From: an uncultured Ruminococcus sp.
Lineage (GTDB): Bacteria; Bacillota; Clostridia; Oscillospirales; Ruminococcaceae
NCBI GenBank assembly: GCA_947177755.1
Contig: CAMWVV010000006.1
Location: forward strand, 1-34,718
Reading direction: 5' to 3'
DNA length: 34,718 nucleotides
Part shown: positions 2,577-34,710 of the stretch, piece after piece
How the letters are laid out: each line of letters opens with the position of its first letter
Position numbering within the stretch: position 1 is the first letter of the stretch
Notes under the pieces: model-generated
What the model was told of the DNA's origin: nothing
What the model saw: only the letters and a program-made list of their open reading frames with translations
Databases searched by the model: none
Made by a program: the position numbers and the translations under genes

Positions 2577-5500
2577 TTATTTATTGTATGTTACCCACTG
2601 ATAACGTGCTGTAAGAGGTGTTTTGCCGTTGAAAGGATTAAGCCATTCGTCAACAGTTATTCCGGGCCATACATTCATCATGATTTTTCCGGCAGTTGAC
2701 GGAATATCACTTGTTGCTTTATATACTTCCTTGCCGTCAACATACCATGTTATGTGGTCGGGCTGCCAGTCAAAACCATATGTGTGGAATCCCTCTGAAG
2801 CGTCAAAGCCGAGGTCATACATATACTCATGATTTCCGACACCGTTTGTATAATAGTTAAGCTGTACTTTTGTTGTATCCTTGCCGAGAATCTCAATGTC
2901 GATTTCGTCCCAAGGGTTATTGTCTGTTGGTCCTGTATAGGTAAAGAACGAAGATACAACACCGTCATTCTTTATAGCCTGCATTGAAGTTTCATAATAG
3001 CCGTACTGGTAAAAATCCTGAGTTCTGTACTCTGCACCTGAATAATTATATTTTCCTGAATGGTCTTTATCAATGGTGAGATTGAGTACACCGCCGTCAA
3101 AAGAAGTATTCTGCTTATACCAGCCACAGTCGAAACAGCTTCCGTTTGTCCAGCCGTCTGAAGCAAAGAATACAGGTGTTTCACCCTTTCTGAAATCGGC
3201 AACTACTGTTGCTTTGTCGTTCATTGGTGTACCGTAATCTTTAATTCCCGAAACAGACGGTGAATAAGATGTTGCTGTAGTTGTAGTAGTGGTCTTCTCC
3301 GAAACAGATGTAGTTGTTACAGCAGTAGTCGTTGTTGTTGTCACGTCGGGCGTTTCGCTTGAGGAATCGTTTTCCAGACTGTCATAATCGAAATCATCAT
3401 AAAGCGGAAGGTCTTTGGCGGAAAGTGTTTTTGATTCAACATACTGAATTACCAAAGCGTCTTTTATTGTAATGCCATCTCCGTGGTTTGCAACATCAGC
3501 ATTTATTTTACCCTGTGCAGAAAGTTTATATTTGTCGGGGTTCGCTATTGACTGCATTATAAGTACAGCGTCGTTAATACCTACTTCTCCGTCTTCATCT
3601 GCATCGCCCCAAAGAATATTATTGTCATCGTTCTGTGCGGGACTGCTTTCTGTAAGAGTAAGGAGATAAGTAAGAGGTGAGTTCCAGTAAATAGTTATTT
3701 CATTTGTCGAATAGCTTTCGGAATTGTCAACATAGCACTTTGCAGGCGGTAAATCACGACAATATGCCTTTGCCGCACTGTCTTCAAGAGCTGAGTTTAC
3801 ACCGCCTACAAGCATACCTTTCATAGCGGTCTCTTTAGCCATTGACGGTCTGTGGTGGGGATTCTGCGGTGATACTGTTCCGAAACCTGTCACAAAACAT
3901 TCACCAATAGGATTTACACCTAAAAGATAATCAAGCTGACCCTGTGCGTTGTCAAGGTATTTCTGTTCGCCTGTCAGCTGATAAGCAACACCAAGAATAA
4001 TACCAGAATTGGCAACAGTCATATTACTGCCCCAGTTGAATTTTGTCTGTGATACGCCGTAGGCGGAGCTTTCGGAAACTGATACGAATTTATCAGCCTG
4101 TGTTATAATGCTGTTGCAGGCATTTTTATAGATGTCAGATTCCTTGTCTATACCTTCCATTGTGGCAATAGCAATGTTACCATAGTCGCCGACTGTTGCC
4201 CAGTCAAGACCCGTTGCAGATGATACATCTGAAAGATAGCCGTTATCACCTGTTGCACGGTAAAGCTGTAAAGATGCCCAGTAAATTTCATCTCTTGCAT
4301 TCCTGTCTTCATAAGCACCCGTTGTAATATCATCGGGATTTGCAAGATAAAGCTCGTTCGGGTTTGCTTTTGCCCACGCATAAGCCTTTTTGGCAGCTTC
4401 AAGGCAGGTATTCGCAAAGTTTGCGTCAACGTCCTTGTAAACTTCATAGGCAAGAGCCATAGATGCAGCAAAGTCAGCAGTGGAAGTTGTTGTTTCAGGC
4501 ATTACAATAAGCGGTTTTGTTTCCTTTTCGGGCATTACATATCCTGGGAAAGTATCGCAGGTAACCTTATGATAAACACCGCCTGTATTCTTGTTCTGCA
4601 TTTTCAGCATCCATTCAAGTTCATAACGGGCTTCGTCAAGAACGTCAGCAGTACCGTTTCCGCTTTCGGGAATACCTATATTGTCGCTGTACATTTCAGG
4701 ATTTGCCTTATAAGCATAGAGCAGGTCAGCAACTGCCTTTGCAGCAGGAACTACATAACGACCATAGTCGCCAGCATCATGCCAACCGCCGCTTACGTCA
4801 ATCTTCTGGTCTGTATGATAGATAGTTGCGATTGTATCATGACATGAAGCATGACCGAAAGTCTCATCTTTTACTTCAGTTCCGCAACGCTGTAAATACA
4901 GCATTCTTATACTGTCGTCAAGCAGATTGTTGTAAACTTTGTCAGAGATTTCAAAAACATATGAGTCATCAAGTCCGCCGTATGAGATGTAATATCTTCC
5001 TGGAGTTTTAACCTCTGAAAAATCAGCTTTATAGTTTGTTTCATTAGCCAGATTATTATTGATTGCCTCTGAAACAACACCATGATACACTACTTCATTT
5101 GTATCAGCATTTATAACTGAAAATTCATTTGTATTTACAGTATCAGCGTTTTTGATTACAGCAAATTTCTTTGAATCAGGTCTATAGCCCACCTGATTAG
5201 TAACTATCTGCGGTTCATAAGGACGTGACGCACTGTAGTCAACATTGCTGTCGTCAATGAGTTCAAGTGAAACATTGTCAAGGTAAATTGTATGTTCAGG
5301 AAGTTCACCGTCTTGTTTCTGTAATCCGCAGTTGAAACAGAATTTTGTCATGATGTCTGTTTCCTCTTCCATTGTAAACTCATAATCAATAGTCTGAGGC
5401 TCTGTTGTAACATCAATACCTTTCCAAGTATAAGCCTGATATGTGCCGCCGTTCTGCTGAATCATGGACTCAACATAGCGTGGAATGGTAGCTGAAATGT

Positions 5501-5804
5501 CAAATTTAAGACGATATACACCGTTCTGATAAAGCGGAACTATATCATAGAACATCTGTACAGCATAATTGAGCGTACCCTGCTTTGTAACATTAAGTGC
5601 AAGCCTGCCGTTATCTGTAGTAAGAGTACAAGCACCGCCACTCTCCTTATATGTACCCCAGCCGAAAGTACCGCTTTCAAAAGTTGAATTTTCAATTATA
5701 TTTGACGCTGCAATTGCAGGTACAGATATAACAGGAAGTGCCGATGCCATGACACTGCACATTGCAAAAACTGCTGCACAGCGTTTCAATATATTTTTTT
5801 TCAT
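2577..5804 (-). CDS. Secreted multimodular glycoside hydrolase: CBM4/9-like - Ig-like/GH9 - dockerin I - Thr-rich linker - GH16
   Basis: Signal peptide; CBM-like NIIENSTFESGTFGWG; PQIVTNQVGYRPDSKKFAVI (GH9 N-terminal Ig-like); GGWHDAGDYGRYVVP, NPHHRPS and NEITIYWNSPL (GH9 catalytic motifs); dockerin repeats DADEDGEVGINDAVLIMQSI and NADVANHGDGITIKDALVIQYV; Thr-rich linker; GH16 motif DEIDIEILGKD. Confidence 0.93.
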   Translation of the reverse strand: MKKNILKRCAAVFAMCSVMASALPVISVPAIAASNIIENSTFESGTFGWGTYKESGGACTLTTDNGRLALNVTKQGTLNYAVQMFYDIVPLYQNGVYRLKFDISATIPRYVESMIQQNGGTYQAYTWKGIDVTTEPQTIDYEFTMEEETDIMTKFCFNCGLQKQDGELPEHTIYLDNVSLELIDDSNVDYSASRPYEPQIVTNQVGYRPDSKKFAVIKNADTVNTNEFSVINADTNEVVYHGVVSEAINNNLANETNYKADFSEVKTPGRYYISYGGLDDSYVFEISDKVYNNLLDDSIRMLYLQRCGTEVKDETFGHASCHDTIATIYHTDQKIDVSGGWHDAGDYGRYVVPAAKAVADLLYAYKANPEMYSDNIGIPESGNGTADVLDEARYELEWMLKMQNKNTGGVYHKVTCDTFPGYVMPEKETKPLIVMPETTTSTADFAASMALAYEVYKDVDANFANTCLEAAKKAYAWAKANPNELYLANPDDITTGAYEDRNARDEIYWASLQLYRATGDNGYLSDVSSATGLDWATVGDYGNIAIATMEGIDKESDIYKNACNSIITQADKFVSVSESSAYGVSQTKFNWGSNMTVANSGIILGVAYQLTGEQKYLDNAQGQLDYLLGVNPIGECFVTGFGTVSPQNPHHRPSMAKETAMKGMLVGGVNSALEDSAAKAYCRDLPPAKCYVDNSESYSTNEITIYWNSPLTYLLTLTESSPAQNDDNNILWGDADEDGEVGINDAVLIMQSIANPDKYKLSAQGKINADVANHGDGITIKDALVIQYVESKTLSAKDLPLYDDFDYDSLENDSSSETPDVTTTTTTAVTTTSVSEKTTTTTTATSYSPSVSGIKDYGTPMNDKATVVADFRKGETPVFFASDGWTNGSCFDCGWYKQNTSFDGGVLNLTIDKDHSGKYNYSGAEYRTQDFYQYGYYETSMQAIKNDGVVSSFFTYTGPTDNNPWDEIDIEILGKDTTKVQLNYYTNGVGNHEYMYDLGFDASEGFHTYGFDWQPDHITWYVDGKEVYKATSDIPSTAGKIMMNVWPGITVDEWLNPFNGKTPLTARYQWVTYNK

Positions 5805-16554: not shown

Positions 16555-17706
16555 ATGAAGAAAAAAGACATCAGACGATACTGTTTTATTGCCGTACTTA
16601 TTTTTGTGGTATGCATTGCAGTCAGGAACTTTTCAGTAATATCAGGACTTATCAAAAAGGCTTTCAGTGTTTCCGTACCTCTTCTTACAGGCTGTATAAT
16701 TGCCTACATCTTCAATATTATCATGACATTCTATGAAAAACACTATTTCCCTAAAAGAAATTCTGACTTTATAAAAAGTTCACGCCGTCCCGTCTGCACT
16801 ATACTTTCATTTGCAAGTGCGGGAATAATCATAGTACTTATTTCAAATATCATCTATCCCGAACTCGTAAAGGCAGTAAAACTTATTTACGACGAAATAC
16901 CGCCGTTTTTCTCGGAAGTACAGAAGTTCGCAAAGACAACGCTGAAAGAATATCCCGAAATACAGGAGTTCATTGACAGCTTTGAACCCGATGTCATGAG
17001 TATCACCGAAAAGATAAGCAGTGGTGCTTATGATATATTTGACTCCGTAATCTCTCTTATAGGCTCGACCGTATCGCTGATAGCAGATACTGTAATAGCC
17101 ATTATTTTCGCACTGTATCTTCTTCTCAGAAAAGACAAGCTGAAAATGGATATTATACGTTTTCAGAAAGCTTATCTCGGTGACAAGACAAACAGACACA
17201 TCAATCATCTTTTTGAAACCGCTCACGAAACTTTCAGAAATTTCTTTGTCGGACAGTTTACCGAAGGTATAATTATAGGTCTGCTGTGTTTTATCGGAAT
17301 GCTTGTTCTGCGTCTTCCCTATTCCGCCATGACTTCAACGATTGTCGGCGTAACTTCACTCATTCCCATTGTAGGCGGACTTTTCGGTGCTGTAATAAGT
17401 GCATTTATAATCTTTACCGTAAATCCGATGCAGGCACTTATTTTTATCATTTTCCTCGTTATCCTGCAACAGATTGAGGGAAACCTTATCTACCCGAAAG
17501 TTGTCGGCTCGTCGGTAGGTCTGCCAGGTATATGGGTAATTGCCGCTGTGACTGTCGGCGGAGGACTTTTCAAAATACTTGGTATGCTCCTCGGTGTTCC
17601 TGTTGTCGCAACCGCATATAAACTTATCTTTGAGATTCTCGAAAAACGTGAACGTTTGCAGTCTGTAACCGAAGAAGAAACAGACGAAGAAGATGAGGAG
17701 GAATAA
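16555..17706 (+). CDS. AI-2E (PerM/TqsA-like) family transporter
   Basis: Multi-TM protein with GVTSLIPIVGGLFGAVISAFI and QQIEGNLIYPKVVGSSVGLPGIWVIAAVTVGGGLFKILGMLLGVPV typical of the family. Confidence 0.9.
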   Translation: MKKKDIRRYCFIAVLIFVVCIAVRNFSVISGLIKKAFSVSVPLLTGCIIAYIFNIIMTFYEKHYFPKRNSDFIKSSRRPVCTILSFASAGIIIVLISNIIYPELVKAVKLIYDEIPPFFSEVQKFAKTTLKEYPEIQEFIDSFEPDVMSITEKISSGAYDIFDSVISLIGSTVSLIADTVIAIIFALYLLLRKDKLKMDIIRFQKAYLGDKTNRHINHLFETAHETFRNFFVGQFTEGIIIGLLCFIGMLVLRLPYSAMTSTIVGVTSLIPIVGGLFGAVISAFIIFTVNPMQALIFIIFLVILQQIEGNLIYPKVVGSSVGLPGIWVIAAVTVGGGLFKILGMLLGVPVVATAYKLIFEILEKRERLQSVTEEETDEEDEEE

Positions 17707-17710
17707 CAAC

Positions 17711-19003
17711 ATGATGAAAATGAAAGACAGCGGTATTGAGTGGATAGGGAAAATACCTCAAGAATATCAAGTTTCAAAAATAAAATACATTTCAGATATC
17801 TTTGGTAGAATAGGATTTAGAGGTTATACCGAAAAGGATTTAGTTGATTATAAGGAAGATGGTGCAATTACACTGAGCCCCTCAAACTTTCATGATATGA
17901 AAATGGACTATACAAAATGTTCATATCTTTCTTGGAAAAAATATGAAGAAAGCCCAGAAATTAAAATATATAATGGTGATGTATTGTTCGTAAAAACAGG
18001 TTCAACTTTTGGTAAAGCTGTATATGTTACAGATTTACCAAAAGAAGCAACAATAAATCCTCAGTTAGTTGTATTTAAGAACATAAAAATAAATAGTAAA
18101 CTGTTTTCATATATATTACAAACAAGAATTATAGAAATTCAATCTGAATTGGCAGTACTTGGTTCTGTAATTCCCACAATGTCACAAGAAAAAATATATA
18201 ACTTTATTATTTCTTTTCCTCCAATTGAAGAACAACAAGCAATATCCGCCTATCTTGACGAAAAATGCACCGAAATAGACTCTCTCATATCAGAGCTGAA
18301 AAAGCAGACAGAAATTCTTGAGGAATATAAGAGGTCTGTGATTATCGAAACAGTCACAAAAGGTCTGAATCCTAACGCTCAAATGAAAGACAGCGGAATT
18401 GAGTGGATAGGTAACATTCCGGAAAACTGGAGGATTCACCCTGTTTATTGCTATTTTTCAGAACGAAAAAATAAAAATTCCTTAGGGCTTGAAAACAATC
18501 TGCTTTCTTTAAGCTATGGGAAAATTGTCAGAAAAAATATTAACTCAAATGAAGGTTTATTGCCAGAAAGTTTCAATACATATAACATCATTGAAAAAGA
18601 TGATATTATTATCCGCCCGACTGATTTGCAGAACGATAAAAAAAGTCTGAGAACAGCTATAGCAAAAGAACATGGTATTATTACATCTGCTTACATTGCT
18701 ATGATGGCAATTAAACCCATAAATTCTCACTATTTTTATTATCTTCTGCACTCATATGATGTTATGAAAGTATTTTACAATATTGGAAATGGTGTAAGAC
18801 AGGGACTGAATTTTTCAGAATTTTCCCGACTGATTGTTTTTGAGCCGACAATAGAAGAACAAAATGAAATAGTTTCATATCTTGATAAAAAGTGTTCTGA
18901 AATTGATTCAATTATTTCCGAAAAAAAACGACAGGTAAAAGCCATAGAAGAATATAAAAAATCATTTATTTATGAGTATGTGACGGGTAAGAAACAACTG
19001 TGA
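17711..19003 (+). CDS. hsdS: Orphan type I restriction-modification specificity subunit (HsdS)
   Basis: Two TRD/helix halves, each starting MKDSGIEWIG[KN]IP and ending PPIEEQQAISAYLDEKCTEIDSLISELKKQ / PTIEEQNEIVSYLDKKCSEIDSIISEKKRQ. No hsdM or hsdR in the window. Confidence 0.92.
   Translation: MMKMKDSGIEWIGKIPQEYQVSKIKYISDIFGRIGFRGYTEKDLVDYKEDGAITLSPSNFHDMKMDYTKCSYLSWKKYEESPEIKIYNGDVLFVKTGSTFGKAVYVTDLPKEATINPQLVVFKNIKINSKLFSYILQTRIIEIQSELAVLGSVIPTMSQEKIYNFIISFPPIEEQQAISAYLDEKCTEIDSLISELKKQTEILEEYKRSVIIETVTKGLNPNAQMKDSGIEWIGNIPENWRIHPVYCYFSERKNKNSLGLENNLLSLSYGKIVRKNINSNEGLLPESFNTYNIIEKDDIIIRPTDLQNDKKSLRTAIAKEHGIITSAYIAMMAIKPINSHYFYYLLHSYDVMKVFYNIGNGVRQGLNFSEFSRLIVFEPTIEEQNEIVSYLDKKCSEIDSIISEKKRQVKAIEEYKKSFIYEYVTGKKQL
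17718..17748 (+). repeat. Direct repeat copy 1 in hsdS (31 bp)
   Basis: aaatgaaagacagcggtattgagtggatagg, one mismatch to 18381-18411. Confidence 0.9.
18381..18411 (+). repeat. Direct repeat copy 2 in hsdS (31 bp)
   Basis: aaatgaaagacagcggaattgagtggatagg, one mismatch to 17718-17748. Confidence 0.9.
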
Positions 19004-24136: not shown

Positions 24137-24142
24137 AAAATA

Positions 24143-24170
24143 ACGGACAGCTTAAAACTGTCCGTTTTTT
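24143..24170. terminator. Bidirectional terminator between convergent patatin and TMK-like genes
   Basis: acggacag-cttaaaa-ctgtccgt followed by tttttt; A-rich on the opposite flank. Confidence 0.88.
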
Positions 24171-24172
24171 AT

Positions 24173-24835
24173 TCAGGGGAAAAGCAATAGTTTTTTTATT
24201 TCACTGAAAATATCGTCTACCGTACGCATTGTATCATTTTCTATACATTCGACAATATTCCAGCCGAATTTATACGCACAGTAGTCGGCAGACACCTTTG
24301 AACGCCTCAGATATTCCATATCACGTTCATGAATGTCCTTTTTTGATTCATCGCTGTTATAACGGGCAGTCATGAGTTTCTGACTTATTTCAAGGTCAGA
24401 ACGCAGATAAATAACGCTGTCGGGTTCAGGAATACCCATATATTTATACTCAAACTCAAAAAGCCAGTCAAGAAAACCGTCCCATTCTTCCCTTTTAAGC
24501 TTTGAACACTGATGCACGGCGTTTGAAGTTGTATAACGGTCGGCGATAACAATTCCGCCATTTTCGTAAAAATCCTGCCATTCGGTTTTAAAGCTTGCGA
24601 AACGGTCAACCGCATAAAAGCTTGACGAAGCGTAAGGATTTACGGAGTCTGCTTTTTTTCCGAAATCCCCCCTGAGATACATTTTTACAAGTGAGGACGA
24701 CGGACTGTCGTAATTCGGAAAACATACCATTTTTACCGATTTGCCGACACTTTCACAGTACTCCTTTAATTTTACTGTCTGAGTATGTTTACCGCTTCCG
24801 TCAAGTCCCTCTATTACAAATAGCTTTCCTTTCAT
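24173..24835 (-). CDS. Thymidylate kinase-like P-loop kinase
   Basis: MKGKLFVIEGLDGSGKHTQTVKLKEY (P-loop), VDRFASF, IVIADRYTTSNAVHQ, LRRSKVSADYCAYKFGWNIVEC. Last gene of the operon; alternative start 24853. Confidence 0.88.
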   Translation of the reverse strand: MKGKLFVIEGLDGSGKHTQTVKLKEYCESVGKSVKMVCFPNYDSPSSSLVKMYLRGDFGKKADSVNPYASSSFYAVDRFASFKTEWQDFYENGGIVIADRYTTSNAVHQCSKLKREEWDGFLDWLFEFEYKYMGIPEPDSVIYLRSDLEISQKLMTARYNSDESKKDIHERDMEYLRRSKVSADYCAYKFGWNIVECIENDTMRTVDDIFSEIKKLLLFP

Positions 24836-24845
24836 AAGTACCCCC

Positions 24846-27230
24846 TTATACACCGATTATTTTACATATTTCCCTGTCAAGCTCCTCACCGAAAACAAAC
24901 AGATTTTCGTCAACTGCCCGAGTATCGAGAATGTCTTTTTTCGCAACGCTGTGAAGTTCCGCCACAGATTTTGCGGTGTCCTGTATTTCGGACGGAGTGA
25001 AGTAACTAAACGCCAGTTTCATTGACGGCAGAATTTCAAGAAAATCATTATATTCCATTTCCGTTATGAGTTTGTCGGTCATTTGCAGAAAAGAATCGTC
25101 AGACAGAATAATATCACGTGCGGTACAGAAAAGCCCCTTGAGAAATTCCGCACCCTTTTTCTGTATTTCCGCAGTTCCCGTAAGATAGCCACGCATGGCA
25201 TTTTCTGCATCTGTTCTATGTGACGGTTCAACAGCGTAAAGCAGACCCGACACCGCTCCGTAGACTGACGGTTCTTTGTCGGCTGACTGCGCCATTGTAA
25301 TAAGAGCCTGCTCCAAAACAGGAAGTTCAGACGTAAGAATATTACCCGTAATACCATACATAATCTTAATAACCGAAATCAGTTCTTCTGCACGTTCTGA
25401 AGCAACGTTTGCCATTGACGGCAGTGAAATTATAAGTTTTTCAAAACACTGTCTTATATAATCAAGTGCGGAAACGTCCGTAAAACCGTAAAGTGACTGT
25501 AAACTGTAAAGCATTTCAAAATATCGCAGACCGTTGCCGACCGAAAAGAAATCGCCGTCTGCCGTAAGAATTTCGTCTATAAGGTCAAGTTCAGTTTTTT
25601 TAAGGGTAATTCCCATAAGAAAACAGTCAACCGCAACCTGTGCCGCTGATTCACACCGCATTTCGCCGTGAAGTTTTTTCACTGCCATTGTACTGCACGC
25701 TTCCTCAATAGTGAAACCGTCTGTTGTGTGGTCGATAAGAGATGCGTCAACATTCGGACTTCTTCTGTAACGCCACTCCTCACGCACACGGCTTCTTCCC
25801 TTGTTATTATGCAGGTCAGGACCTTTTTTCATTCTTGCAAAATCCGTTTCAAGAAATTCCATTCTGTGCAGAAAACGGCTTAATTCCATACCTTTCTGAG
25901 TAGTGAATAGCGGTACTTCAATATCATTCGGCATAACATCCTTTATTTTAAGACGGAATTTTTTACTCTGTTCTTCAAAGTCCGTTATAAGAGGCGGTAC
26001 ATGGGTTTTGTCGCCTATAAATCCAACATCTTTACCTGTTGCAAGCCGTCTGAGAATATCAAGAGGCAGTGACGACGAAACCGTTTTTTCACCCTTTATA
26101 AACGTACTTGTCACGCCGTCGTAAAGTTCGTACATTCCACACTCCCTTGAACCTCTCAGCGATGCAAGACCATCCATGAGAGTTTTAGCGGAAGTAACGT
26201 CAGCAATTGAAACGGGAATATCTTTCTTGTTTGTCTGTTTTGCCGTCTTTACAAGGAGGTCAAGAGTTAAATTATTATAGACGTTTTCGGGCGAATCACT
26301 TTCAAGGAGTCTGTTTGTTACCATATCATAAAAATACGGAAAACTCATTCCCGAAGCATAACCGTGAAGTGCGTCTGCCGATTCGTAAGAATACGCCATA
26401 GGATAACAGCCGTGCAGATTTTCGGGAATTTTACGAAGTCGGGGCGGTTTTATCTTTCCGCCCGAAATCAGATTGTAAATTCCCATACTGTGAAAACCAC
26501 CCGTAACCACAAGAACTTTTTCATATTTCTCCATAGCCTCTGTGATTCTCTGTGCCATATGACTTTCACGGGCAAGTGTACCGTCTGCTTTCATTTCCTC
26601 TTCAGAAGTTTCAAGACGTGTTATTATACAGTAAGTGTGAAGCTGCTTTACAAACTTTTCGGGAGTAAGAAAAATTCCCGAAATCTCAAAGTATTTTTCC
26701 CAGAACTCGTCAAAACTACGGACGTTTGTTTCCTCACAGATTTTTTCATAGAATTTACTTTGTGTAAGATGTGAATCGTCCGCATAGCTGTGCTTTTCAG
26801 TATTTTTACGCAGACCTTTCTTTTCTGCCGTATTAATCAGTATATCACAGTACGGCAGGTCAATGAACTCCGCAGGAATACCAAGCATTTTCGCCTGCTT
26901 CATTGCGTTGTACTCAGGTGACGAATACAGAAAAGGATAATAACATTTATAATCCTCTGCGTTCTCGCTGACAAGTTTTTTAGTGTCCTTGTAATAATAG
27001 TATACAGCCGACGGAAGTTTTGTGTTGTCGTCCGTAAGCACAGGAATAAGACCGTTTGCGTTTTCAGGACCTTCAATAAGAATTATGTCGGGTCTGTATT
27101 CGTTTATTGTCCTTACAAGCTGGTACGAACACACGGGACTATGATGACGCACGGGAAAAAGCAGAAGTTTTTCCGAGAGGTCAAAAGGAATCATTTCAGC
27201 AATTTCGCTGTTTCTGTGTACTTTTTCCAT
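24846..27230 (-). CDS. DUF5682 family protein (YehM-like)
   Basis: LLLFPVRHHSPVCSYQLVRTINEYRPDIILIEGPENANGLIPVLTDD ... VLVVTGGFHSMGIYNL; adjacent to a MoxR ATPase. Overlaps the MoxR gene by 40 nt. Confidence 0.82.
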   Translation of the reverse strand: MEKVHRNSEIAEMIPFDLSEKLLLFPVRHHSPVCSYQLVRTINEYRPDIILIEGPENANGLIPVLTDDNTKLPSAVYYYYKDTKKLVSENAEDYKCYYPFLYSSPEYNAMKQAKMLGIPAEFIDLPYCDILINTAEKKGLRKNTEKHSYADDSHLTQSKFYEKICEETNVRSFDEFWEKYFEISGIFLTPEKFVKQLHTYCIITRLETSEEEMKADGTLARESHMAQRITEAMEKYEKVLVVTGGFHSMGIYNLISGGKIKPPRLRKIPENLHGCYPMAYSYESADALHGYASGMSFPYFYDMVTNRLLESDSPENVYNNLTLDLLVKTAKQTNKKDIPVSIADVTSAKTLMDGLASLRGSRECGMYELYDGVTSTFIKGEKTVSSSLPLDILRRLATGKDVGFIGDKTHVPPLITDFEEQSKKFRLKIKDVMPNDIEVPLFTTQKGMELSRFLHRMEFLETDFARMKKGPDLHNNKGRSRVREEWRYRRSPNVDASLIDHTTDGFTIEEACSTMAVKKLHGEMRCESAAQVAVDCFLMGITLKKTELDLIDEILTADGDFFSVGNGLRYFEMLYSLQSLYGFTDVSALDYIRQCFEKLIISLPSMANVASERAEELISVIKIMYGITGNILTSELPVLEQALITMAQSADKEPSVYGAVSGLLYAVEPSHRTDAENAMRGYLTGTAEIQKKGAEFLKGLFCTARDIILSDDSFLQMTDKLITEMEYNDFLEILPSMKLAFSYFTPSEIQDTAKSVAELHSVAKKDILDTRAVDENLFVFGEELDREICKIIGV

Positions 27231-28294
27231 AATCCACCAACTTTACCTTTTTCCTTTGCAACAGTGCGGAAATAGCTTTTAAGCTTTTCAAGGTCGTCCT
27301 TATTTTCCTTACAAACCGCACCTAAAAGATTTTCAGTCATAACATTAAGGTCAACCTGTCCGTCACCGTAGTACCATGCATGGCTTATAGTCTGATAGTA
27401 AACGGAAACGGCTTCTGCTGTACTCATAACGGCGGACGGTTTGTCAATGCGTGTGCCTTTATCCGTCATACCCTCACGGAGTTCATGATAGGTAACCGCA
27501 AGAAGTTCAGCCGCATCAACGTCAACAGGCATATCAATGTGACCTGCTTCCGCAAGATTCTGTGCCTCACGGATAATAATCTGCTTTTCAAGCCTTACGT
27601 CCTTTACAGGTTCAACCGTCTCAAAATTAAAACGTCGCTTCAAAGCTCCCGACATCTCATTAACGCCTTTGTCACGGGTATTCGCCGTACCTATTATATT
27701 AAAACCAGGGCGGGCAAAAACAAAACCGTCGTCAGCGAGTTCAGGAATATTAAGAATCTGGTCACTCATTATTGAAATAAGACTGTCCTGAATTTCGGCA
27801 GGTGTACGTGTTATTTCCTCAAAACGTGCAAAAATCCCCTTTTCCATTCCGACAAGAAGCGGCGACGGTACAAGTGCCTCACGGCACGGACCTTTTGAAA
27901 GCAGAAGTGCATAATTCCAGCTGTACTTAATCATATCTTCTGTAGTTCCTGCTGTTCCCTGCACTGTGTTTGTGCTTACTCCGCAACAGGCGGCGGAAAG
28001 AAGTTCAGAAAGCATGGTTTTAGCCGTACCCGGTTCGCCGACAAGCATAAGCCCACGGTTTCCTGCAAGCGTTATTATACATCTTTCAACAAGAGCGTCG
28101 TTGCCGTAGAACTTTCTTGCAATTTCAACGTTTCCGTCGTCTGTTTTTACCTTTCCGCCGAGAATGAACGTTCTGACGGCTTTCGGGGAAAGCTTCCAGT
28201 TTTCAGGACGCTTTCCGTTGTCGTACTTTGCGAGTAATTCAAGTTCGTCTGCATAACGAACTTCAACAGGCGGTTTAATTAAATTCTTTTCCAT
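27191..28294 (-). CDS. MoxR-family AAA+ ATPase (YehL-like)
   Basis: Walker A GEPGTAKTMLSE, Walker B-like IFARFEEITR, IIGTANTRDKGVNEMSGALKRRFNFE. ATG 28294 with AAAGGA RBS is preferred over 28333. Confidence 0.92.
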   Translation of the reverse strand: MEKNLIKPPVEVRYADELELLAKYDNGKRPENWKLSPKAVRTFILGGKVKTDDGNVEIARKFYGNDALVERCIITLAGNRGLMLVGEPGTAKTMLSELLSAACCGVSTNTVQGTAGTTEDMIKYSWNYALLLSKGPCREALVPSPLLVGMEKGIFARFEEITRTPAEIQDSLISIMSDQILNIPELADDGFVFARPGFNIIGTANTRDKGVNEMSGALKRRFNFETVEPVKDVRLEKQIIIREAQNLAEAGHIDMPVDVDAAELLAVTYHELREGMTDKGTRIDKPSAVMSTAEAVSVYYQTISHAWYYGDGQVDLNVMTENLLGAVCKENKDDLEKLKSYFRTVAKEKGKVGGLWKKYTETAKLLK

Positions 28295-28310
28295 ATATTT
28301 TTTCCTTTCA

Positions 28311-31300
28311 TTATTGTTCGTCAGTTCCTGCAACTGAAGCCAACTGCATAACTATCTCACTGAAATAGCGTGGGTTTACATCTTTGATTTTAAGCTTTTT
28401 GTTAGTTCCGCTACTATAGAAAAACAGCGTTTCGAGAGTCATCATTTCATTCTGCATAAAATCAATACACATTCCGCTGAACTCTATTTCTGTTCTGTAT
28501 CCTTCGGAAACAGTAATTTCATCATCGTGTACAAACTCCATAAAATAGCCTGCGTCCTGCGGACAACCAGTTTCCCAGCCCATTTTTGTAAGCTTGCCCC
28601 TCAGCGTATAATCACTTACTTCCTTGCCCTCAAAACGTGATACACCCTCCTGATTGAGTTCGGATTCATCAGGTTTATAACAAAGTCTGTCGAGTTGATT
28701 GAACGGCTGAATTATTTCGTAATCGGAAAGCTGTTCTGCCCATGACGCACGCTGTTCGTCTGTAAGTTCAATCGGGTGGACAAGTCCGATTTCCGCATTT
28801 TCGGGGATTTCAAATTCATCTTCATCAATATTTGTGAAACTTCCGTCGTCCATATATCTGAAACTTTCCTTAAGCTGTCCGCACTCGTAAACGCCCCATA
28901 TCAGACCGACTGCAAAACAGTGCATAACGGGATTCTTCACAAACAGATTATTCCATGCATCAGCCGTCCACTTTCTGTCACACATAAGAACGTATTCAAG
29001 ACGGTTTTTCTGACTTTCAATAACTGCCTTAATCTGCTTTTTCATAACCTTGAAATCGTTGTAGGACTTTTCGGCAAGTTCCTTGTCGTCATTAACACCA
29101 GGTTTTGACATATTTTTTACCTTTTTGTCGCCGTTGTAAATTTCCAGTTCAAGCGACGGCGTAAGGTATACTTTAAACTGTCTTTTTCCGTAGTCGAAAA
29201 CACGGCACATATTCTCATCAAAATTCATATCGGGTACTATTCTGTCACCGAGTTCTTCCTTAGTGATTCCGAGTTCTTTGGCTGCTATATCAAGAGCATA
29301 ATTTGCGGCATTTCGTACCTGTCTGTGTTTGAATTTACGTGCCATATTGTCAACGTTCATAAGAGCTTCTGAACTGCCGTTCACCGCCATTGCATAAACA
29401 GCTTCAGACGCAATCGCACCTCTTGAATGTTCCGTCCACTCTTTTATATAGTGCATAAGATTATTTATCATATCGTGACCGCCGTGAACCCCGCAGAACC
29501 ACAACACCCATTTTGTCTTTGCAGCTGCACCCTTTTCAAGCCAGCGACCGAAAACATCAAGTGTAAAGTCACCCAGTTCGTCTGGATTGATTTTTTCTGC
29601 AATGTCAAGAGCGGTCGGGTTTACGGTAACGGAAGTCATTTCCGAATAAATTATAAGCAGAGCCTTAAGGTAATCTTCCGGAACTTCACCGCCGTCTTTA
29701 AAGTGTACGGTTTTATATGGCTGTTCAAAGAGCCATGCCACTTTTTTTGATTTTGCACCCCTTACAAGTCCAGAAACAATGTCAACGTTTTCTGAACTTT
29801 TTCCGGAAGTTTCTGAACCGTAATTCACGTCAAGAAGTCCTGCAATTCGTACCTTGATTTTTTCGGACTTTTCCTTTTCAAAAGCCTTTTCAAGTTCAGC
29901 ACGGTAATTTTCGGGATTCTGCTTTTCTATCACCGATACGGCAATTTCACGCATACCTACCTTTTTGGACTGCAATAATTCCACTATATCATCATGCCAG
30001 TCATGAGCGGAAATTATCCCTGTCAGTGCATTTTTTACCAGTTTGCTTGTATCGCCGACAAGTGCGAGAATCTGTGATTTATACTTGTCTGCATCTGCTA
30101 TGCCGAGACCTGATACATATATCCATCTCGCATTTACACTCATGTCTTTAACGTCAATGTCTGAGAACATATCAGCGTTTTCAGCAAGGGCATTTGCAGA
30201 ATTAAACATAACTTCGTCTTTTCCGCTCCACAAGCCGTCAATATAGTTTCCGAACGAATCAAGAATAGTTTTTGCAGGTACTTTCTGTTCCGAAAGAATA
30301 TTTATAAACTGTTTTTCGTTTCCTTTGAGTTCAAAATCAGTGTAATGCCGAAAAGTCCAATGATAAGTTTCCTTGCAGACAGAACACAAAGTAATGACAC
30401 GTTTCATAAAATCGTCAAAACCATATGTTTTGGTGTAATGGCTTTCTTCACCGTTATATCCTCTCATTACGTCATCTTTGATAAGCGGAAGAATATCATT
30501 TATATCGCAGTTTCCCATAAGATAACTACGGACTTCGTTCTTACACTGAAAATGATTGCTTACATTCTTTGAAAGACGTATCTGTGCTTTTTCTTTCAGG
30601 GAATTTTCCTTAGCGATATACTTCGGATTTGCCTTACACAGAATATTTTCCATTTCCTTTGCCTTAGAAACGTCAGAACGCAATTCCATAGACTTCACAT
30701 ACTCGTCAGTATACTTTACGGCAAGTTTTCCGAGATGACTGACAACAGAAGCTTTATTCATATGCTTGTCCACAAGATATGCTATATACACATAGTCCAC
30801 GCAGTCGGGAATTTCAGCAATCATGTCAAGCACACTCTCAGGATTAGGCATATAACTAATAGCGTGTTCCGCAACCTGAATTTCCTTGCATTTCTTTACA
30901 GCTTCAGTAAAATATGTACGGCACTTATCCGAAAAATAAGCTCCCTCCCCTGTCGCAAACACAAGCTGAATATATAAAGCAGGTTTTTTGTCTATAAGTC
31001 CGTGAACGTATTCAAGTGCCTTTTCGACAATCGGGTCAGTTTCAGTCTTTGAAATAAGCTTTGCTATTATTCCTTTCTTTTCAGGTACAGGACTTTGATT
31101 CAAAGCATATGCACAGAGCCGTGCAATTGTAACGGGGTCATCGTCTGCGAAATCAACAGCGTCAATGCAGACCTGAGGGGATTTAATCTTAAAATCGCAA
31201 CTTACAAACCACTTTCCTGACATCTGTTGCACATATATCGCAAACACACAGGCTTCCGCCTTTTCCCCGAATCTTGAGGAAAAAATTTTAACGAGTTTGT

Positions 31301-31643
31301 TTTCCTGTTTTGTAAACTCATAATGTCCTACAGCGCACGTAATAAATACATATGAATACGAACCATAAATAGCCTGTGAAAGCAGTATATAGCGTTCAAA
31401 AAGCTCATCACTTCTCGTGGCGATGATTTCACGTTTTATAGCCCTTTCGAGCTTGTCACGCACTCCCCAGCCATCATTTATAAGAGTGTGCTTGGATATT
31501 CTGTCAAGCAAAGCATTGTTTCTGTCGTTTGATGTGTCGAGATACTCAACACCGATTTCGATAGTTTCCTTATCTATACCGTAAGCACTCATAGCTTCGG
31601 CAAGTTTCGGAAAACCGCTTACATTTCCGTTTGAATAAAGCAT
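28311..31643 (-). CDS. Large DUF4132 protein (MolR/YehI-like) with HEAT-like middle region
   Basis: C-terminal DUF4132-type segment QKNRLEYVLMCDRKWTADAWNNLFVKNPVMHCFAVGLIWGVYE...IGLVHPIELTDEQRASWAEQLSDYEIIQPFNQLDRLCY; repetitive helical region before it. Confidence 0.85.
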   Translation of the reverse strand: MLYSNGNVSGFPKLAEAMSAYGIDKETIEIGVEYLDTSNDRNNALLDRISKHTLINDGWGVRDKLERAIKREIIATRSDELFERYILLSQAIYGSYSYVFITCAVGHYEFTKQENKLVKIFSSRFGEKAEACVFAIYVQQMSGKWFVSCDFKIKSPQVCIDAVDFADDDPVTIARLCAYALNQSPVPEKKGIIAKLISKTETDPIVEKALEYVHGLIDKKPALYIQLVFATGEGAYFSDKCRTYFTEAVKKCKEIQVAEHAISYMPNPESVLDMIAEIPDCVDYVYIAYLVDKHMNKASVVSHLGKLAVKYTDEYVKSMELRSDVSKAKEMENILCKANPKYIAKENSLKEKAQIRLSKNVSNHFQCKNEVRSYLMGNCDINDILPLIKDDVMRGYNGEESHYTKTYGFDDFMKRVITLCSVCKETYHWTFRHYTDFELKGNEKQFINILSEQKVPAKTILDSFGNYIDGLWSGKDEVMFNSANALAENADMFSDIDVKDMSVNARWIYVSGLGIADADKYKSQILALVGDTSKLVKNALTGIISAHDWHDDIVELLQSKKVGMREIAVSVIEKQNPENYRAELEKAFEKEKSEKIKVRIAGLLDVNYGSETSGKSSENVDIVSGLVRGAKSKKVAWLFEQPYKTVHFKDGGEVPEDYLKALLIIYSEMTSVTVNPTALDIAEKINPDELGDFTLDVFGRWLEKGAAAKTKWVLWFCGVHGGHDMINNLMHYIKEWTEHSRGAIASEAVYAMAVNGSSEALMNVDNMARKFKHRQVRNAANYALDIAAKELGITKEELGDRIVPDMNFDENMCRVFDYGKRQFKVYLTPSLELEIYNGDKKVKNMSKPGVNDDKELAEKSYNDFKVMKKQIKAVIESQKNRLEYVLMCDRKWTADAWNNLFVKNPVMHCFAVGLIWGVYECGQLKESFRYMDDGSFTNIDEDEFEIPENAEIGLVHPIELTDEQRASWAEQLSDYEIIQPFNQLDRLCYKPDESELNQEGVSRFEGKEVSDYTLRGKLTKMGWETGCPQDAGYFMEFVHDDEITVSEGYRTEIEFSGMCIDFMQNEMMTLETLFFYSSGTNKKLKIKDVNPRYFSEIVMQLASVAGTDEQ

Positions 31644-31644
31644 T

Positions 31645-33402
31645 TTATTTACTTCCTTTCATATTATATAATGATGTGATTATTTCAAGACGTTTCCGTC
31701 CCTGATTCAGATATTCATTTATCTGATGTATTTTAAAAAGAACTTCCGAACAGTCGCCGTCAATGCTGTGGCGATATGATGACGCACACTGCATGAACTC
31801 TCCTATAAGCCTGCTCAGACCCTTTAAACCATAGTTGAACGCAAGATTTTCAAGCCTGTGGTCGTTCTTAATATCCGCCTGTAGTCCTCCACGCACAATA
31901 ACGCATATCATGTCATTTACTTCTGAAAAAAGATTAATAATCCTCTCCGCATAAACCGCCGAAACATCAGTATTTTCGTACTTTTCGGGAAGTTCGTAAA
32001 CTTCGGGAACAGGCGGTTTTATAAAGTCATATATCTCTATCGGGAAAAGGGTAAGTTCGCCGTCGGATATATACGCAGACGCAAGAAAGACATAATTTTT
32101 CTTCGGCTTTTTAATCATTCTTTCGCCTATGCTTTCAAGAAGCTTTATAAAATCTTTTGTCTCTGCACGGTACTTTGCACGCACGGAAATTCTGTTCCCT
32201 TGTACGTCCTCCAGTATAATTACATACTGCTGACTGTATTTGTCAAAAGTACTTTCAATGCACTTTTTCGGCTGTACGAAACATAGCTTTTCAAGTTCGT
32301 TTTCGGGATTTTTTTCAGAAATCTCTATTGCAAGCTTTCTGAAATCGGTATAAATCATGTCACGGATTTTGTCGCAATCCAGAACGGCTTTACAGGTTGA
32401 AATAATCTGTGTTTCCTGCGAGGACGACAATTTTCCCCCGCTTACTTTAGCGTTGGCAAGTTTCATTTCAGAGTGCATCATACTTTTCATTGAATTTGCC
32501 ATACCCCACGGAAAAGTAACCCCTCTGAAATGTTTCTGAGTATCATTATAGAAAACGGGTCTCAAATCCGACAGCGACAAAAAACGCTGTTCCGCATAAA
32601 CGTCCATATTCAGAAAATAATAAATTTCGCCCTCATATTCACCTCCTCTGATACTTCGCTGACCTATCGGCATAATATCAATGTTTCCTTTATATTCGGT
32701 GTAAGTCTGACGGAAAGTGCCGAGCTGTTCGGGTTCAATGCAGTCTGATTTAAGAAGTTCAAGAACCTCAATACAGTTACATAATTTATAAATAAAACTA
32801 TCCATACTGAATGACGCACGCCTTGCTATACAGTCGGACAGACGGCTTCCCGCTTCCCTTAATGCACGCTCCGCATCTGCCATTTTCAAAGCATGACAAC
32901 GCACAGCAGACGCTTCAAGCATATCGGGCAGATTTTCAGGTATACGCACAAGACCGTATTTCAGAATACTGCCGAGGGTTTCAAGGCACTGATTCACACA
33001 GTTGTGTATTTTAGCAATGTCACGCTCCGAAATCTGTTCTTTCTTTTTTTCCTCTTTTACTTCTGCAACGGTTTCAGTCTTTTCAACGGGAGTTTCAGGC
33101 TTTACAGGTTCGGGAACTTCTGCCGTAACATCGAGTGAAACATTATTCCGCAGAATCAGAACAGCTCCGATAATATGACGGCATATCCCTCTTGCAACAC
33201 AAGTACATTTACTTTCCGCAAGCGGTACTGATATTGTACACGTTTCACCGCCTGTACGGACTACAGCAGAATTTTCACTAAGTTCAAAATCCGCATCTGC
33301 ACCATCGGTATCCTTACACGCACGCTTGTATATTCCTTTGTTTGAAAGTCCGACAAGAAAATTTTCGTCTGCAAAAGCAAGAGCCTTTTTTAATTCGTCC
33401 AA
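31645..33402 (-). CDS. SWIM zinc-finger protein (YehQ-like)
   Basis: N-terminal SWIM motif CTCVARGICRH (CxCxnCxH). TTG start with AGAGGTG RBS; stop 1 nt before the DUF4132 start. Confidence 0.85.
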   Translation of the reverse strand: MDELKKALAFADENFLVGLSNKGIYKRACKDTDGADADFELSENSAVVRTGGETCTISVPLAESKCTCVARGICRHIIGAVLILRNNVSLDVTAEVPEPVKPETPVEKTETVAEVKEEKKKEQISERDIAKIHNCVNQCLETLGSILKYGLVRIPENLPDMLEASAVRCHALKMADAERALREAGSRLSDCIARRASFSMDSFIYKLCNCIEVLELLKSDCIEPEQLGTFRQTYTEYKGNIDIMPIGQRSIRGGEYEGEIYYFLNMDVYAEQRFLSLSDLRPVFYNDTQKHFRGVTFPWGMANSMKSMMHSEMKLANAKVSGGKLSSSQETQIISTCKAVLDCDKIRDMIYTDFRKLAIEISEKNPENELEKLCFVQPKKCIESTFDKYSQQYVIILEDVQGNRISVRAKYRAETKDFIKLLESIGERMIKKPKKNYVFLASAYISDGELTLFPIEIYDFIKPPVPEVYELPEKYENTDVSAVYAERIINLFSEVNDMICVIVRGGLQADIKNDHRLENLAFNYGLKGLSRLIGEFMQCASSYRHSIDGDCSEVLFKIHQINEYLNQGRKRLEIITSLYNMKGSK

Positions 33403-33417
33403 AAAAATTCACCTCTT

Positions 33418-34563
33418 TCATGAAAAAATTTTACCTATGTAATCTCCGAGCTGTTCGGGAGTCAACGCACCGACAAATGCCCCCATATTTGCGAGTATCT
33501 GTCCCAGATTTCTGTCATATGACGGACGTGCCTCTTCGTCGAGTGCGGTAAGAAAACTAAGCTTTGCACCGCTTTCAATAATATTCTTGCTTATATTAAG
33601 CAGACGGCTTCTTTCCGCACCTTCATACAAGTCAGTAACCACTATAACGCACGTATGCGACGGCGTGCCTATAAGGCTTTCACAGTAACCCAACGCACTG
33701 CCTATGTCAGTACCACCGCCAAGCTGTACACTCATGAGAACTTGTGCAGGGTCGTCAGCTTCACTTGAAAGGTCAACAATGCTCGTATCAAAAATAACAA
33801 GCTTTACTTCCGCAAACGGCAGATTTGAAATAATCTGTGCCATAACTGCACTGTATATAATCGACCCCGTCATTGAACCGCTTTCGTCTATGGCAATAAT
33901 AACACGTTTATTGTTATAACGTCTTACACGACTGCTGAAATATATATCTTTAAGGACAATCTGCTGACGCTCCGTATCGTAATTTTTGAGATTACGGCGG
34001 ATAGTCTTTTTTATGTCAAGATTTCGGGCAGAGTGTACGGGACTTGATGAGTTTCTGTCTATTCTTCCAAGAACCGAACGGCGTATATCGTTCTCAAGTT
34101 TTTTTCTTATATCGTCGGCAACCTGCTTTGCAATTCTTTTAGCTGTTTCAAGAACTTCGCCTTTCATAAGGTGTTTAAGCTGTAGAACGCTTTTCAGTAA
34201 ATTCATATCGGGTTTAAGCTGTTCAAGGACTTTTTTGTCCGTAAGCAGTTCTGTCATTTCAAATTCCTCAAGAGCGTGCTTTTCAAGAACTTCGGCAGTC
34301 TGATTCGGGAAAAGTTCACGTACTTTTGTAATCCATTCGGCAGCCGTCAGGACTGTTTCGTCAAGACTGCCTGACCTTTCGTCTGAACGCACGTCGTCGC
34401 CCTGTGAACGACTGTAAAGATAGTCAAGTAACTGCTCCATATCCTGAAATTGCAGTATATCACGGCTTTCACCGCTAAACTGTAATTGTTTGTCGGAAAG
34501 ACCTCCGAGAACGAGCCTCCAGCGGTTTACGGCAGTATTTGAATAATTATCGGGAGTATTCAT
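33418..34563 (-). CDS. VWA-domain protein with MIDAS motif (YehP-like)
   Basis: VIIAIDESGSMTGSI (DxSxS), GGGTDIGSAL, CVIVVTDLYEG; C-terminal VWA, helical N-terminal region. Confidence 0.93.
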   Translation of the reverse strand: MNTPDNYSNTAVNRWRLVLGGLSDKQLQFSGESRDILQFQDMEQLLDYLYSRSQGDDVRSDERSGSLDETVLTAAEWITKVRELFPNQTAEVLEKHALEEFEMTELLTDKKVLEQLKPDMNLLKSVLQLKHLMKGEVLETAKRIAKQVADDIRKKLENDIRRSVLGRIDRNSSSPVHSARNLDIKKTIRRNLKNYDTERQQIVLKDIYFSSRVRRYNNKRVIIAIDESGSMTGSIIYSAVMAQIISNLPFAEVKLVIFDTSIVDLSSEADDPAQVLMSVQLGGGTDIGSALGYCESLIGTPSHTCVIVVTDLYEGAERSRLLNISKNIIESGAKLSFLTALDEEARPSYDRNLGQILANMGAFVGALTPEQLGDYIGKIFS

Positions 34564-34629: not shown

Positions 34630-34658
34630 ATTATACCATATTCTTACAGACAATTCAA
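34630..34658 (-). promoter_or_regulatory. Strong sigma-A promoter candidate TTGAAT-N17-TATAAT for the VWA/SWIM/DUF4132/MoxR/DUF5682/TMK operon
   Basis: Reverse-strand TTGAAT (34658-34653), 17-nt spacer ending TGG, TATAAT (34635-34630). Confidence 0.75.
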
Positions 34659-34676: not shown

Positions 34677-34710
34677 AAAACTGCCGTTTACAAAAACGAC
34701 AGTTTTTTTA
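34677..34710. terminator. Intrinsic terminator upstream of the operon promoter
   Basis: aaaactgccgttt-acaa-aaacgacagtttttttatt: stem with one C/A mismatch, T-tract downstream and A-tract upstream. Confidence 0.75.

What the first reader, a model, noticed from the sequence alone, without database searches (positions are those of the whole stretch)
24173..34563. Six-gene VWA-SWIM-DUF4132-MoxR-DUF5682-TMK operon of unknown function
Six genes on one strand are nearly contiguous (gaps of 15, 1 and 16 nt, then overlaps) under one strong promoter with a terminator at each end. The first five match by family the E. coli yehP (VWA), yehQ (SWIM), yehI/molR-like (DUF4132), yehL (MoxR AAA+) and yehM (DUF5682) set, whose function is not firmly established. 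MoxR-VWA pairs typically act as metal-dependent remodelling or chaperone machines. A SWIM DNA/protein-binding module, a giant HEAT/DUF4132 scaffold and a DUF5682 putative effector suggest a multi-part NTP-driven system, possibly stress or conflict related.
Basis: partly seen in the sequence, partly recalled or inferred. Interest (0 to 1): 0.72.

Follow-up and report, generated by a model that had tools for sequence, protein, structure and literature searches.

The report
MoxR–VWA machine with hydrolase-like DUF5682
A set of five bacterial genes that travels together from gut bacteria to E. coli (the uncharacterised yehLMPQI genes) looks like an ATP-driven machine built around a probable hydrolase of the TraB/Tiki fold; the sixth gene reported is just the cell's ordinary thymidylate kinase sitting next to it.

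Summary
In detail: six minus-strand genes, 24173-34563, one good promoter, a terminator at each end. Five genes (VWA, SWIM, DUF4132, MoxR, DUF5682) are a conserved system: in about 95 DUF5682 loci from many phyla MoxR, DUF5682 and VWA nearly always sit together in that order, with a SWIM protein and a HEAT-type scaffold (DUF4132 or DUF5691). The TMK is not part of it: it is the genome's only tmk, occurs in 51 of 61 family genomes, and stands alone in the same-genus genome. New result: DUF5682 is probably a TraB/Tiki-fold hydrolase. Its GxxH, E, RExxM and GGxH residues match that family in order and spacing, and its predicted N-terminal domain finds TraB-containing and erythromycin-esterase structures first. 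Best model: a cytosolic MoxR-VWA machine that activates or gates a DUF5682 hydrolase, with SWIM/HEAT proteins as adaptors. Molybdate metabolism (the old E. coli 'MolR' label) is refuted as a general role: 10 of 11 related genomes searched lack molybdenum-cofactor genes. No defence-island signal was found and the E. coli set is core genome, so a conflict role is unsupported but not excluded. Substrate unknown. An overlooked but widespread system.

The parts
34677..34706 (-). Terminator-like hairpin upstream of the operon, ending a preceding transcript
34630..34658 (-). Sigma-70 promoter TTGAAT-17-TATAAT with extended -10 (TG)
   Evidence: 10 of 12 consensus bases, but the scan's total number of hits is at the shuffle expectation
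33418..34563 (-). VWA protein (CoxE-type), intact MIDAS DESGS...GGGTD...TDL
   Evidence: VWA_CoxE 6.8e-40; MIDAS complete in 92 of 94 homologues
31645..33402 (-). SWIM zinc-finger protein, motif CTCVARGICRH at residue 66
   Evidence: YehQ-like
28311..31643 (-). DUF4132 protein; relatives show HEAT repeats before the DUF4132 domain
   Evidence: 6.6e-45; HEAT_2 in relatives
27191..28333 (-). MoxR-type AAA+ ATPase, Walker A GEPGTAKT, Walker B ARFEE, Arg finger ALKRRF; likely start ATG at 28294
24846..27230 (-). DUF5682 protein: N-terminal TraB/Tiki-like domain (about residues 14-312) plus alpha-helical C-terminal region
24173..24853 (-). Thymidylate kinase; housekeeping neighbour, not part of the system (likely start ATG at 24835)
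24142..24166 (.). Bidirectional terminator between the tmk end and the convergent patatin gene

Best explanation
The five genes VWA-SWIM-DUF4132-MoxR-DUF5682 encode a cytosolic AAA+ machine. MoxR (ATPase ring) and the CoxE-type VWA protein form the motor/co-chaperone pair. DUF5682 is the catalytic subunit: an N-terminal TraB/Tiki-fold hydrolase domain with a 2His/Glu active site, followed by a helical, solenoid-like region. The motor remodels DUF5682, either to mature it (as NorQD does for nitric oxide reductase) or to switch it on, so that it hydrolyses a peptide or ester bond in a substrate chosen by the SWIM protein and the HEAT/DUF4132 (or DUF5691) scaffold. Shown by sequence: the set, its co-inheritance, intact motor and MIDAS motifs, and invariant catalytic-type residues. 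Supported by prediction: the TraB/Tiki fold. Inferred: DUF5682 is the client of the motor, the adaptor roles, and hydrolysis itself. Substrate and trigger are unknown.
For: Neighbourhood: MoxR in 101, VWA in 98 and SWIM in 89 of 104 loci with DUF5682, nearly always in the order MoxR-DUF5682-VWA; two types, DUF4132-MoxR-DUF5682-VWA-SWIM and SWIM-DUF5691-MoxR-DUF5682-VWA. Distances between components correlate at r = 0.90-0.98, 0 of 200 shuffles as high. DUF5682: R28, H29, E53, E106, D124, E182, R205, R221, E222, G244, H247 invariant in 61 of 61 sequences. Model of the N-domain pLDDT 88.5, pTM 0.90; its first PDB matches are chains of the Tetrahymena complex IV (7w5z_E, probability 1.00, E 3.2e-4; 8b6h_DQ; 8bqs_DQ), whose paper reports a TraB-family subunit (PMC10060162), then erythromycin esterase EreC (6xcs, 6xcq) and BcR135 (3b55). 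The full model's first match among viral proteins is a 'TraB family protein', probability 1.00. Profile comparison with TraB/GumN proteins aligns REAxM..GGxH to RNxxM..GxxH with the same spacing, P 0.009-0.013, against 0.05-0.7 for five other component profiles. MIDAS complete in 92 of 94 VWA proteins; Walker A and Arg finger present. MoxR-VWA pairs remodel enzymes and insert metal (PMC13036017). No clear membrane segment in any of the five proteins.
Against: Foldseek TM-scores are low (0.38 at best) and the EreC match is E 0.038. The profile P of 0.009 is weak alone, and Pfam TraB/ChaN hits are below cut-off. The second Glu of the 2His/2Glu motif (two residues before the first His in PMC6254334) is V27 in the window. 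The window has P26 where most members have the G of the first GxxH. No direct evidence that MoxR-VWA acts on DUF5682 rather than on something else.
Confidence: 0.45

Rival explanations
1. A conflict or anti-phage system: MoxR-VWA senses invasion and releases DUF5682 as a toxic hydrolase.
For: Related MoxR-vWA ternary systems are proposed conflict systems (PMC7159879). Distribution in the window's own bacterial family is patchy, 8 of 61 genomes. One relative has variable LRR proteins interleaved with the operon. One plasmid copy sits beside a type I restriction system.
Against: No PADLOC family matches more than one of 145 flanking proteins (only 25 of 49 families listed). No viral contig encodes it; the only phage-collection hit is an unverified scaffold. 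In E. coli it is in 5311 of 5426 genomes, nearly always chromosomal. Catalytic residues are invariant and DUF5682 was not seen swapped for another effector, unlike the conflict systems in PMC7159879. No PADLOC match for any of the five system proteins (the tmk alone gives a weak hit, PDC-M51B, 3e-8).
Confidence: 0.22
2. Cofactor or molybdate metabolism: the set matures a molybdenum or other metal enzyme elsewhere in the cell, as CoxD/CoxE do, consistent with the E. coli name MolR.
For: The VWA protein is CoxE-like; CoxD-CoxE serve metal-cluster insertion (PMC7159879); DUF4132/MolR has been linked by name to molybdate (PMC8533742).
Against: MoaA and MoeA are absent from the window's genome and from 9 of the 10 other system-bearing genomes searched, so molybdenum cofactor cannot be the general purpose. 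No other enzyme gene recurs in the system besides DUF5682 itself.
Confidence: 0.12
3. DNA-damage or stress response machine: SWIM and WGR/DUF4132 parts bind nucleic acid and the set acts in the SOS response.
For: A LexA-box-like site scoring 16.2 lies upstream of E. coli yehF (WGR), the best in its 26 kb; weaker boxes precede DUF4132 in Proteus and Xenorhabdus. Deinococcus DUF4132/WGR genes rise on DdrO depletion and E. coli MolR was described as LexA-regulated (PMC8533742).
Against: LexA-like sites are not enriched upstream across all loci (31 in 134 kb against 435 in 1.84 Mb). The window promoter has only a one-mismatch box, and such boxes are at chance frequency. No WGR domain was found in the window's DUF4132 protein.
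Confidence: 0.12
4. All six genes, TMK included, form one functional unit (nucleotide metabolism linked to the machine).
For: TMK is contiguous and probably cotranscribed in the window.
Against: TMK was found next to the system in no other locus, is the only tmk in the genome, is present in 51 of 61 family genomes with or without the system, and has unrelated neighbours in the same-genus genome.
Confidence: 0.02

Closest known systems
E. coli K-12 yehI-yehL-yehM-yehP-yehQ (chromosomal, function unknown)
   Same: Same five families, one strand, close packing
   Different: Order D-M-E-V-S against V-S-D-M-E in the window; DUF5682 only 23% identical; E. coli has a second, broken DUF4132 gene (yehH) and a WGR gene (yehF)
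NorQ-NorD / CoxD-CoxE / RavA-ViaA MoxR-VWA chaperone pairs
   Same: MoxR AAA+ plus VWA with intact MIDAS; VWA is CoxE-type
   Different: Client here appears to be an encoded TraB/Tiki-like hydrolase, plus SWIM and HEAT partners; MoxR Walker B reads R-h-E-E instead of D-E
MoxR-vWA-centric ternary conflict systems (VMAP, iSTAND, FtsH, beta-propeller; PMC7159879)
   Same: MoxR-VWA core with further components
   Different: None of the four defining third components detected; VWA ends after its domain with no fused effector; not confined to multicellular taxa
TraB/PrgY/GumN, Tiki, ChaN, erythromycin esterase superfamily
   Same: Motif order GxxH-E-RxxxM-GxxH, predicted fold, spacing
   Different: Apparently cytosolic, fused to a large helical region and encoded with an AAA+ motor; first-motif Glu absent

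Membership tests
yehLMPQI-type five-gene set | DUF5682, MoxR, VWA, SWIM and DUF4132/DUF5691 genes together on one strand | tested here: met
yehLMPQI-type five-gene set | Gene order MoxR-DUF5682-VWA (common, not known to be required) | tested here: not met
   Window is permuted to VWA-SWIM-DUF4132-MoxR-DUF5682; the MoxR-DUF5682 and VWA-SWIM-DUF4132 blocks are kept
MoxR-VWA chaperone pairs | MoxR with Walker A, sensor 1 and Arg finger | tested here: met
   GEPGTAKT, GTANTRD, ALKRRF; 98 of 100 homologues keep the finger
MoxR-VWA chaperone pairs | Canonical Walker B Asp-Glu | tested here: not met
   FEE in the window; R-h-E-E in 78 of 79 readable homologues, so a family-wide conservative change, not a loss
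MoxR-VWA chaperone pairs | VWA with complete MIDAS (DxSxS-T-D) | tested here: met
   92 of 94
MoxR-VWA chaperone pairs | VWA finger enters MoxR pore; ATP-driven remodelling | not testable with these tools
   needs biochemistry or cryo-EM
TIKI/TraB/EreA superfamily (DUF5682) | Core of a parallel beta-sheet surrounded by helices | tested here: inconclusive
   Predicted alternating strands and helices, confident model, top structural matches Tetrahymena complex IV chain and EreC, but TM-scores below 0.5
TIKI/TraB/EreA superfamily (DUF5682) | Two GxxH motifs with a Glu after strand 2 | tested here: met
   H29, E53, H247 in 61 of 61; first G is P in the window, G in most members
TIKI/TraB/EreA superfamily (DUF5682) | Second catalytic Glu two residues before first His (2His/2Glu, PMC6254334; not in all members) | tested here: not met
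   V27 in the window
TIKI/TraB/EreA superfamily (DUF5682) | Hydrolysis of peptide or ester bonds | not testable with these tools
   needs enzyme assay
MoxR-vWA ternary conflict systems | VMAP, iSTAND, FtsH or beta-propeller third component | tested here: not met
   No such domain by Pfam; bpMoxR 18.5 bits, below cut-off 27
MoxR-vWA ternary conflict systems | Variable effector domains fused to VWA | tested here: not met
   Window VWA is 381 aa and ends after the VWA domain
Anti-phage defence system | Match to known defence models or defence-island neighbourhood | tested here: not met
   far-flank control not run
Thymidylate kinase as part of the system | Co-conserved with the other five | tested here: not met

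The most novel reading that the evidence does not exclude
The set is a new kind of AAA+-controlled proteolytic machine: a MoxR ring with its VWA partner gates a TraB/Tiki-fold peptidase (DUF5682), with SWIM and HEAT proteins choosing the substrate. It would be present in nearly all E. coli yet unrecognised.
Probability: 0.18. Interest if true: 0.85.

Novelty: new variant of a known kind. Interest (0 to 1): 0.55.

Why it matters
The same five genes sit, uncharacterised, in E. coli (yehM alone is in 5311 of 5426 complete genomes) and in many phyla. Placing DUF5682 in the TraB/Tiki hydrolase superfamily gives a concrete catalytic hypothesis for the set, and names residues (H29, E53, H247; MIDAS; Walker A) for direct test in ordinary E. 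coli K-12 knockouts. If right, it adds a hydrolase to the short list of MoxR-VWA clients and removes the misleading molybdate label.

Tried and rejected
TMK as a sixth member: rejected. Molybdate metabolism: rejected as a general role. LexA/SOS control as a general feature: not enriched over all loci. Phage or viral carriage: none (one unverified fecal scaffold). Defence-island enrichment: none seen, though a far-flank control set was prepared but not scanned. Foldseek with the whole DUF5682 model gave mostly helical-repeat noise in the PDB because the helical half dominates; the N-domain alone was then modelled. Profile search of PDB sequences with DUF5682 found only de novo helical designs and a short helical match. 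Literature: no paper in the held library mentions DUF5682, three mention DUF4132, none joins SWIM zinc finger with MoxR. LRR_5 proteins inside one relative's operon were followed: these are an expanded family in that genome and are not in the window's operon.
Full report
What is there. The window lies at the end of a contig of a Clostridia-like genome of 2.6 Mb (the lineage is my reading of the gene content and relatives); the contig stops 155 nt upstream of the VWA gene. Pfam names VWA_CoxE, AAA_5/MoxR, DUF4132, DUF5682 and Thymidylate_kin; the SWIM protein has no Pfam match but a canonical SWIM motif, CTCVARGICRH.

Is it a real unit? A collection scan with a DUF5682 alignment gave 80 loci from Bacteroidota, Actinomycetota, Pseudomonadota, Bacillota, Verrucomicrobia and others; with plasmid, E. 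coli and family genomes there are about 95 usable loci. Profiles built from the window proteins find MoxR in 101, VWA in 98, SWIM in 89 and DUF4132 in 67 of 104 (some loci are overlapping fetches or contig ends). The order MoxR-DUF5682-VWA is nearly invariant. Two types appear: DUF4132-MoxR-DUF5682-VWA-SWIM, and SWIM-DUF5691-MoxR-DUF5682-VWA; some Bacillota and other loci of the second type have a weakly HEAT-like 600-aa protein in the DUF5691 slot. Close relatives have MoxR-DUF5682-VWA-SWIM-DUF4132; one genome keeps SWIM-DUF4132 six kb away from MoxR-DUF5682-VWA. The window's order VWA-SWIM-DUF4132-MoxR-DUF5682 was seen nowhere else among these. Component distances correlate at 0.90-0.98; shared species history contributes to that number.

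TMK. No other system locus has it. It is the only thymidylate kinase found in the genome and occurs in 51 of 61 genomes of the family. In the same-genus genome G019, which lacks DUF5682, tmk has unrelated neighbours. It is a housekeeping neighbour.

DUF5682. Sixty-one diverse sequences share invariant R28, H29, E53, D124, E182, R221, E222, G244 and H247. The pattern G-x-x-H, Glu 24 residues on, R-E-x-x-M, then G-x-x-H with its His 22 residues after the Met parallels TraB/GumN proteins: GxxH, Glu 26 on, R-N-x-x-M, GxxH with its His 22 after the Met. Profile comparison picks the same segment (P 0.009; controls 0.05-0.7). The whole protein models well (pLDDT 89.2), as does the N-domain alone (pLDDT 88.5, pTM 0.90). 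Against solved structures the N-domain finds first three chains of Tetrahymena complex IV, a complex reported to hold a TraB-family subunit (PMC10060162), then erythromycin esterases. That the matched chains are that TraB subunit is my inference. The full model's first viral-library match is a TraB family protein. TM-scores are modest, so I hold the fold assignment at about 0.85. One catalytic Glu of the 2His/2Glu set described for a TIKI enzyme (PMC6254334) is absent, so catalysis is likely but not assured.

The motor. Walker A and Arg finger are conserved; Walker B reads R-h-E-E in place of D-E across the family; the VWA MIDAS is complete in 92 of 94. MoxR-VWA pairs such as NorQD remodel a client enzyme and insert metal (PMC13036017). 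The one other enzyme-like protein always present is DUF5682, which makes it the best client candidate; this step is inference. SWIM (mean identity 21.5%) and DUF4132 (26.8%) vary most and MoxR least (51.8%), as expected if they face variable partners. DUF4132 relatives carry HEAT repeats and are often duplicated in tandem, consistent with an adaptor or scaffold.

Conflict or housekeeping? In E. coli yehM is in 5311 of 5426 genomes, nearly always chromosomal. In the window's family it is patchy, 8 of 61. Flanking genes show no recurring defence family, no viral contig carries it, and DUF5682 was not seen replaced. These argue against a standard defence system but do not exclude one; the loci were selected by DUF5682, so a replacement of that very component would have been missed. 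Ten of 11 system genomes, the window's own included, lack MoaA and MoeA, which rules out molybdenum cofactor as the general purpose; the window genome is 92.6% complete, so a miss in one genome alone would be weak. An SOS link is plausible for Enterobacterales only.

Verdict. A real, widespread, overlooked five-gene system. It works like a MoxR-VWA remodelling machine; it is not a member of the described ternary conflict classes. The new element is the probable TraB/Tiki-type hydrolase at its core.

Noticed in passing
L100:4979-13056 (genome G028): BspA-type LRR_5 genes with a shared C-terminal tail are interleaved with the system genes of the closest-type relative; the genome holds dozens of related LRR matches.
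   Followed up: partly
L133:7857-8774: A gene matching aminoglycoside/hydroxyurea phosphotransferase (APH_6_hur) lies between DUF5682 and VWA in one genome.
   Followed up: no
L001:4448-4467: LexA-box-like site CTGGATAAAATTACAG just upstream of E. coli yehF (WGR); weaker conserved boxes upstream of DUF4132 in Proteus and Xenorhabdus.
   Followed up: partly
window 27191-28333 and about 100 homologues: MoxR Walker B Asp is replaced by Glu (R-h-E-E) throughout the family.
   Followed up: partly
L008 (NZ_CP103756.1): A chromosomal E. coli yeh/bts segment has been captured on a conjugative IncF plasmid between IS26 copies, next to CTX-M-15 and other resistance genes.
   Followed up: no
L005 (NZ_CP025783.1): Plasmid copy of the system in Iodobacter sits directly beside a type I restriction-modification locus and transposases.
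   Followed up: no
window 17693-19003: Type I restriction specificity-like gene (Methylase_S) within the same window, next to a GGDEF gene; possible restriction remnant.
   Followed up: no
window 2577-5804: Glycoside hydrolase with GH9 and GH16 catalytic domains in one protein plus a carbohydrate-binding module.
   Followed up: no
L130 (genome G329): System split into SWIM-DUF4132 and MoxR-DUF5682-VWA blocks about 6 kb apart, suggesting two modules.
   Followed up: no
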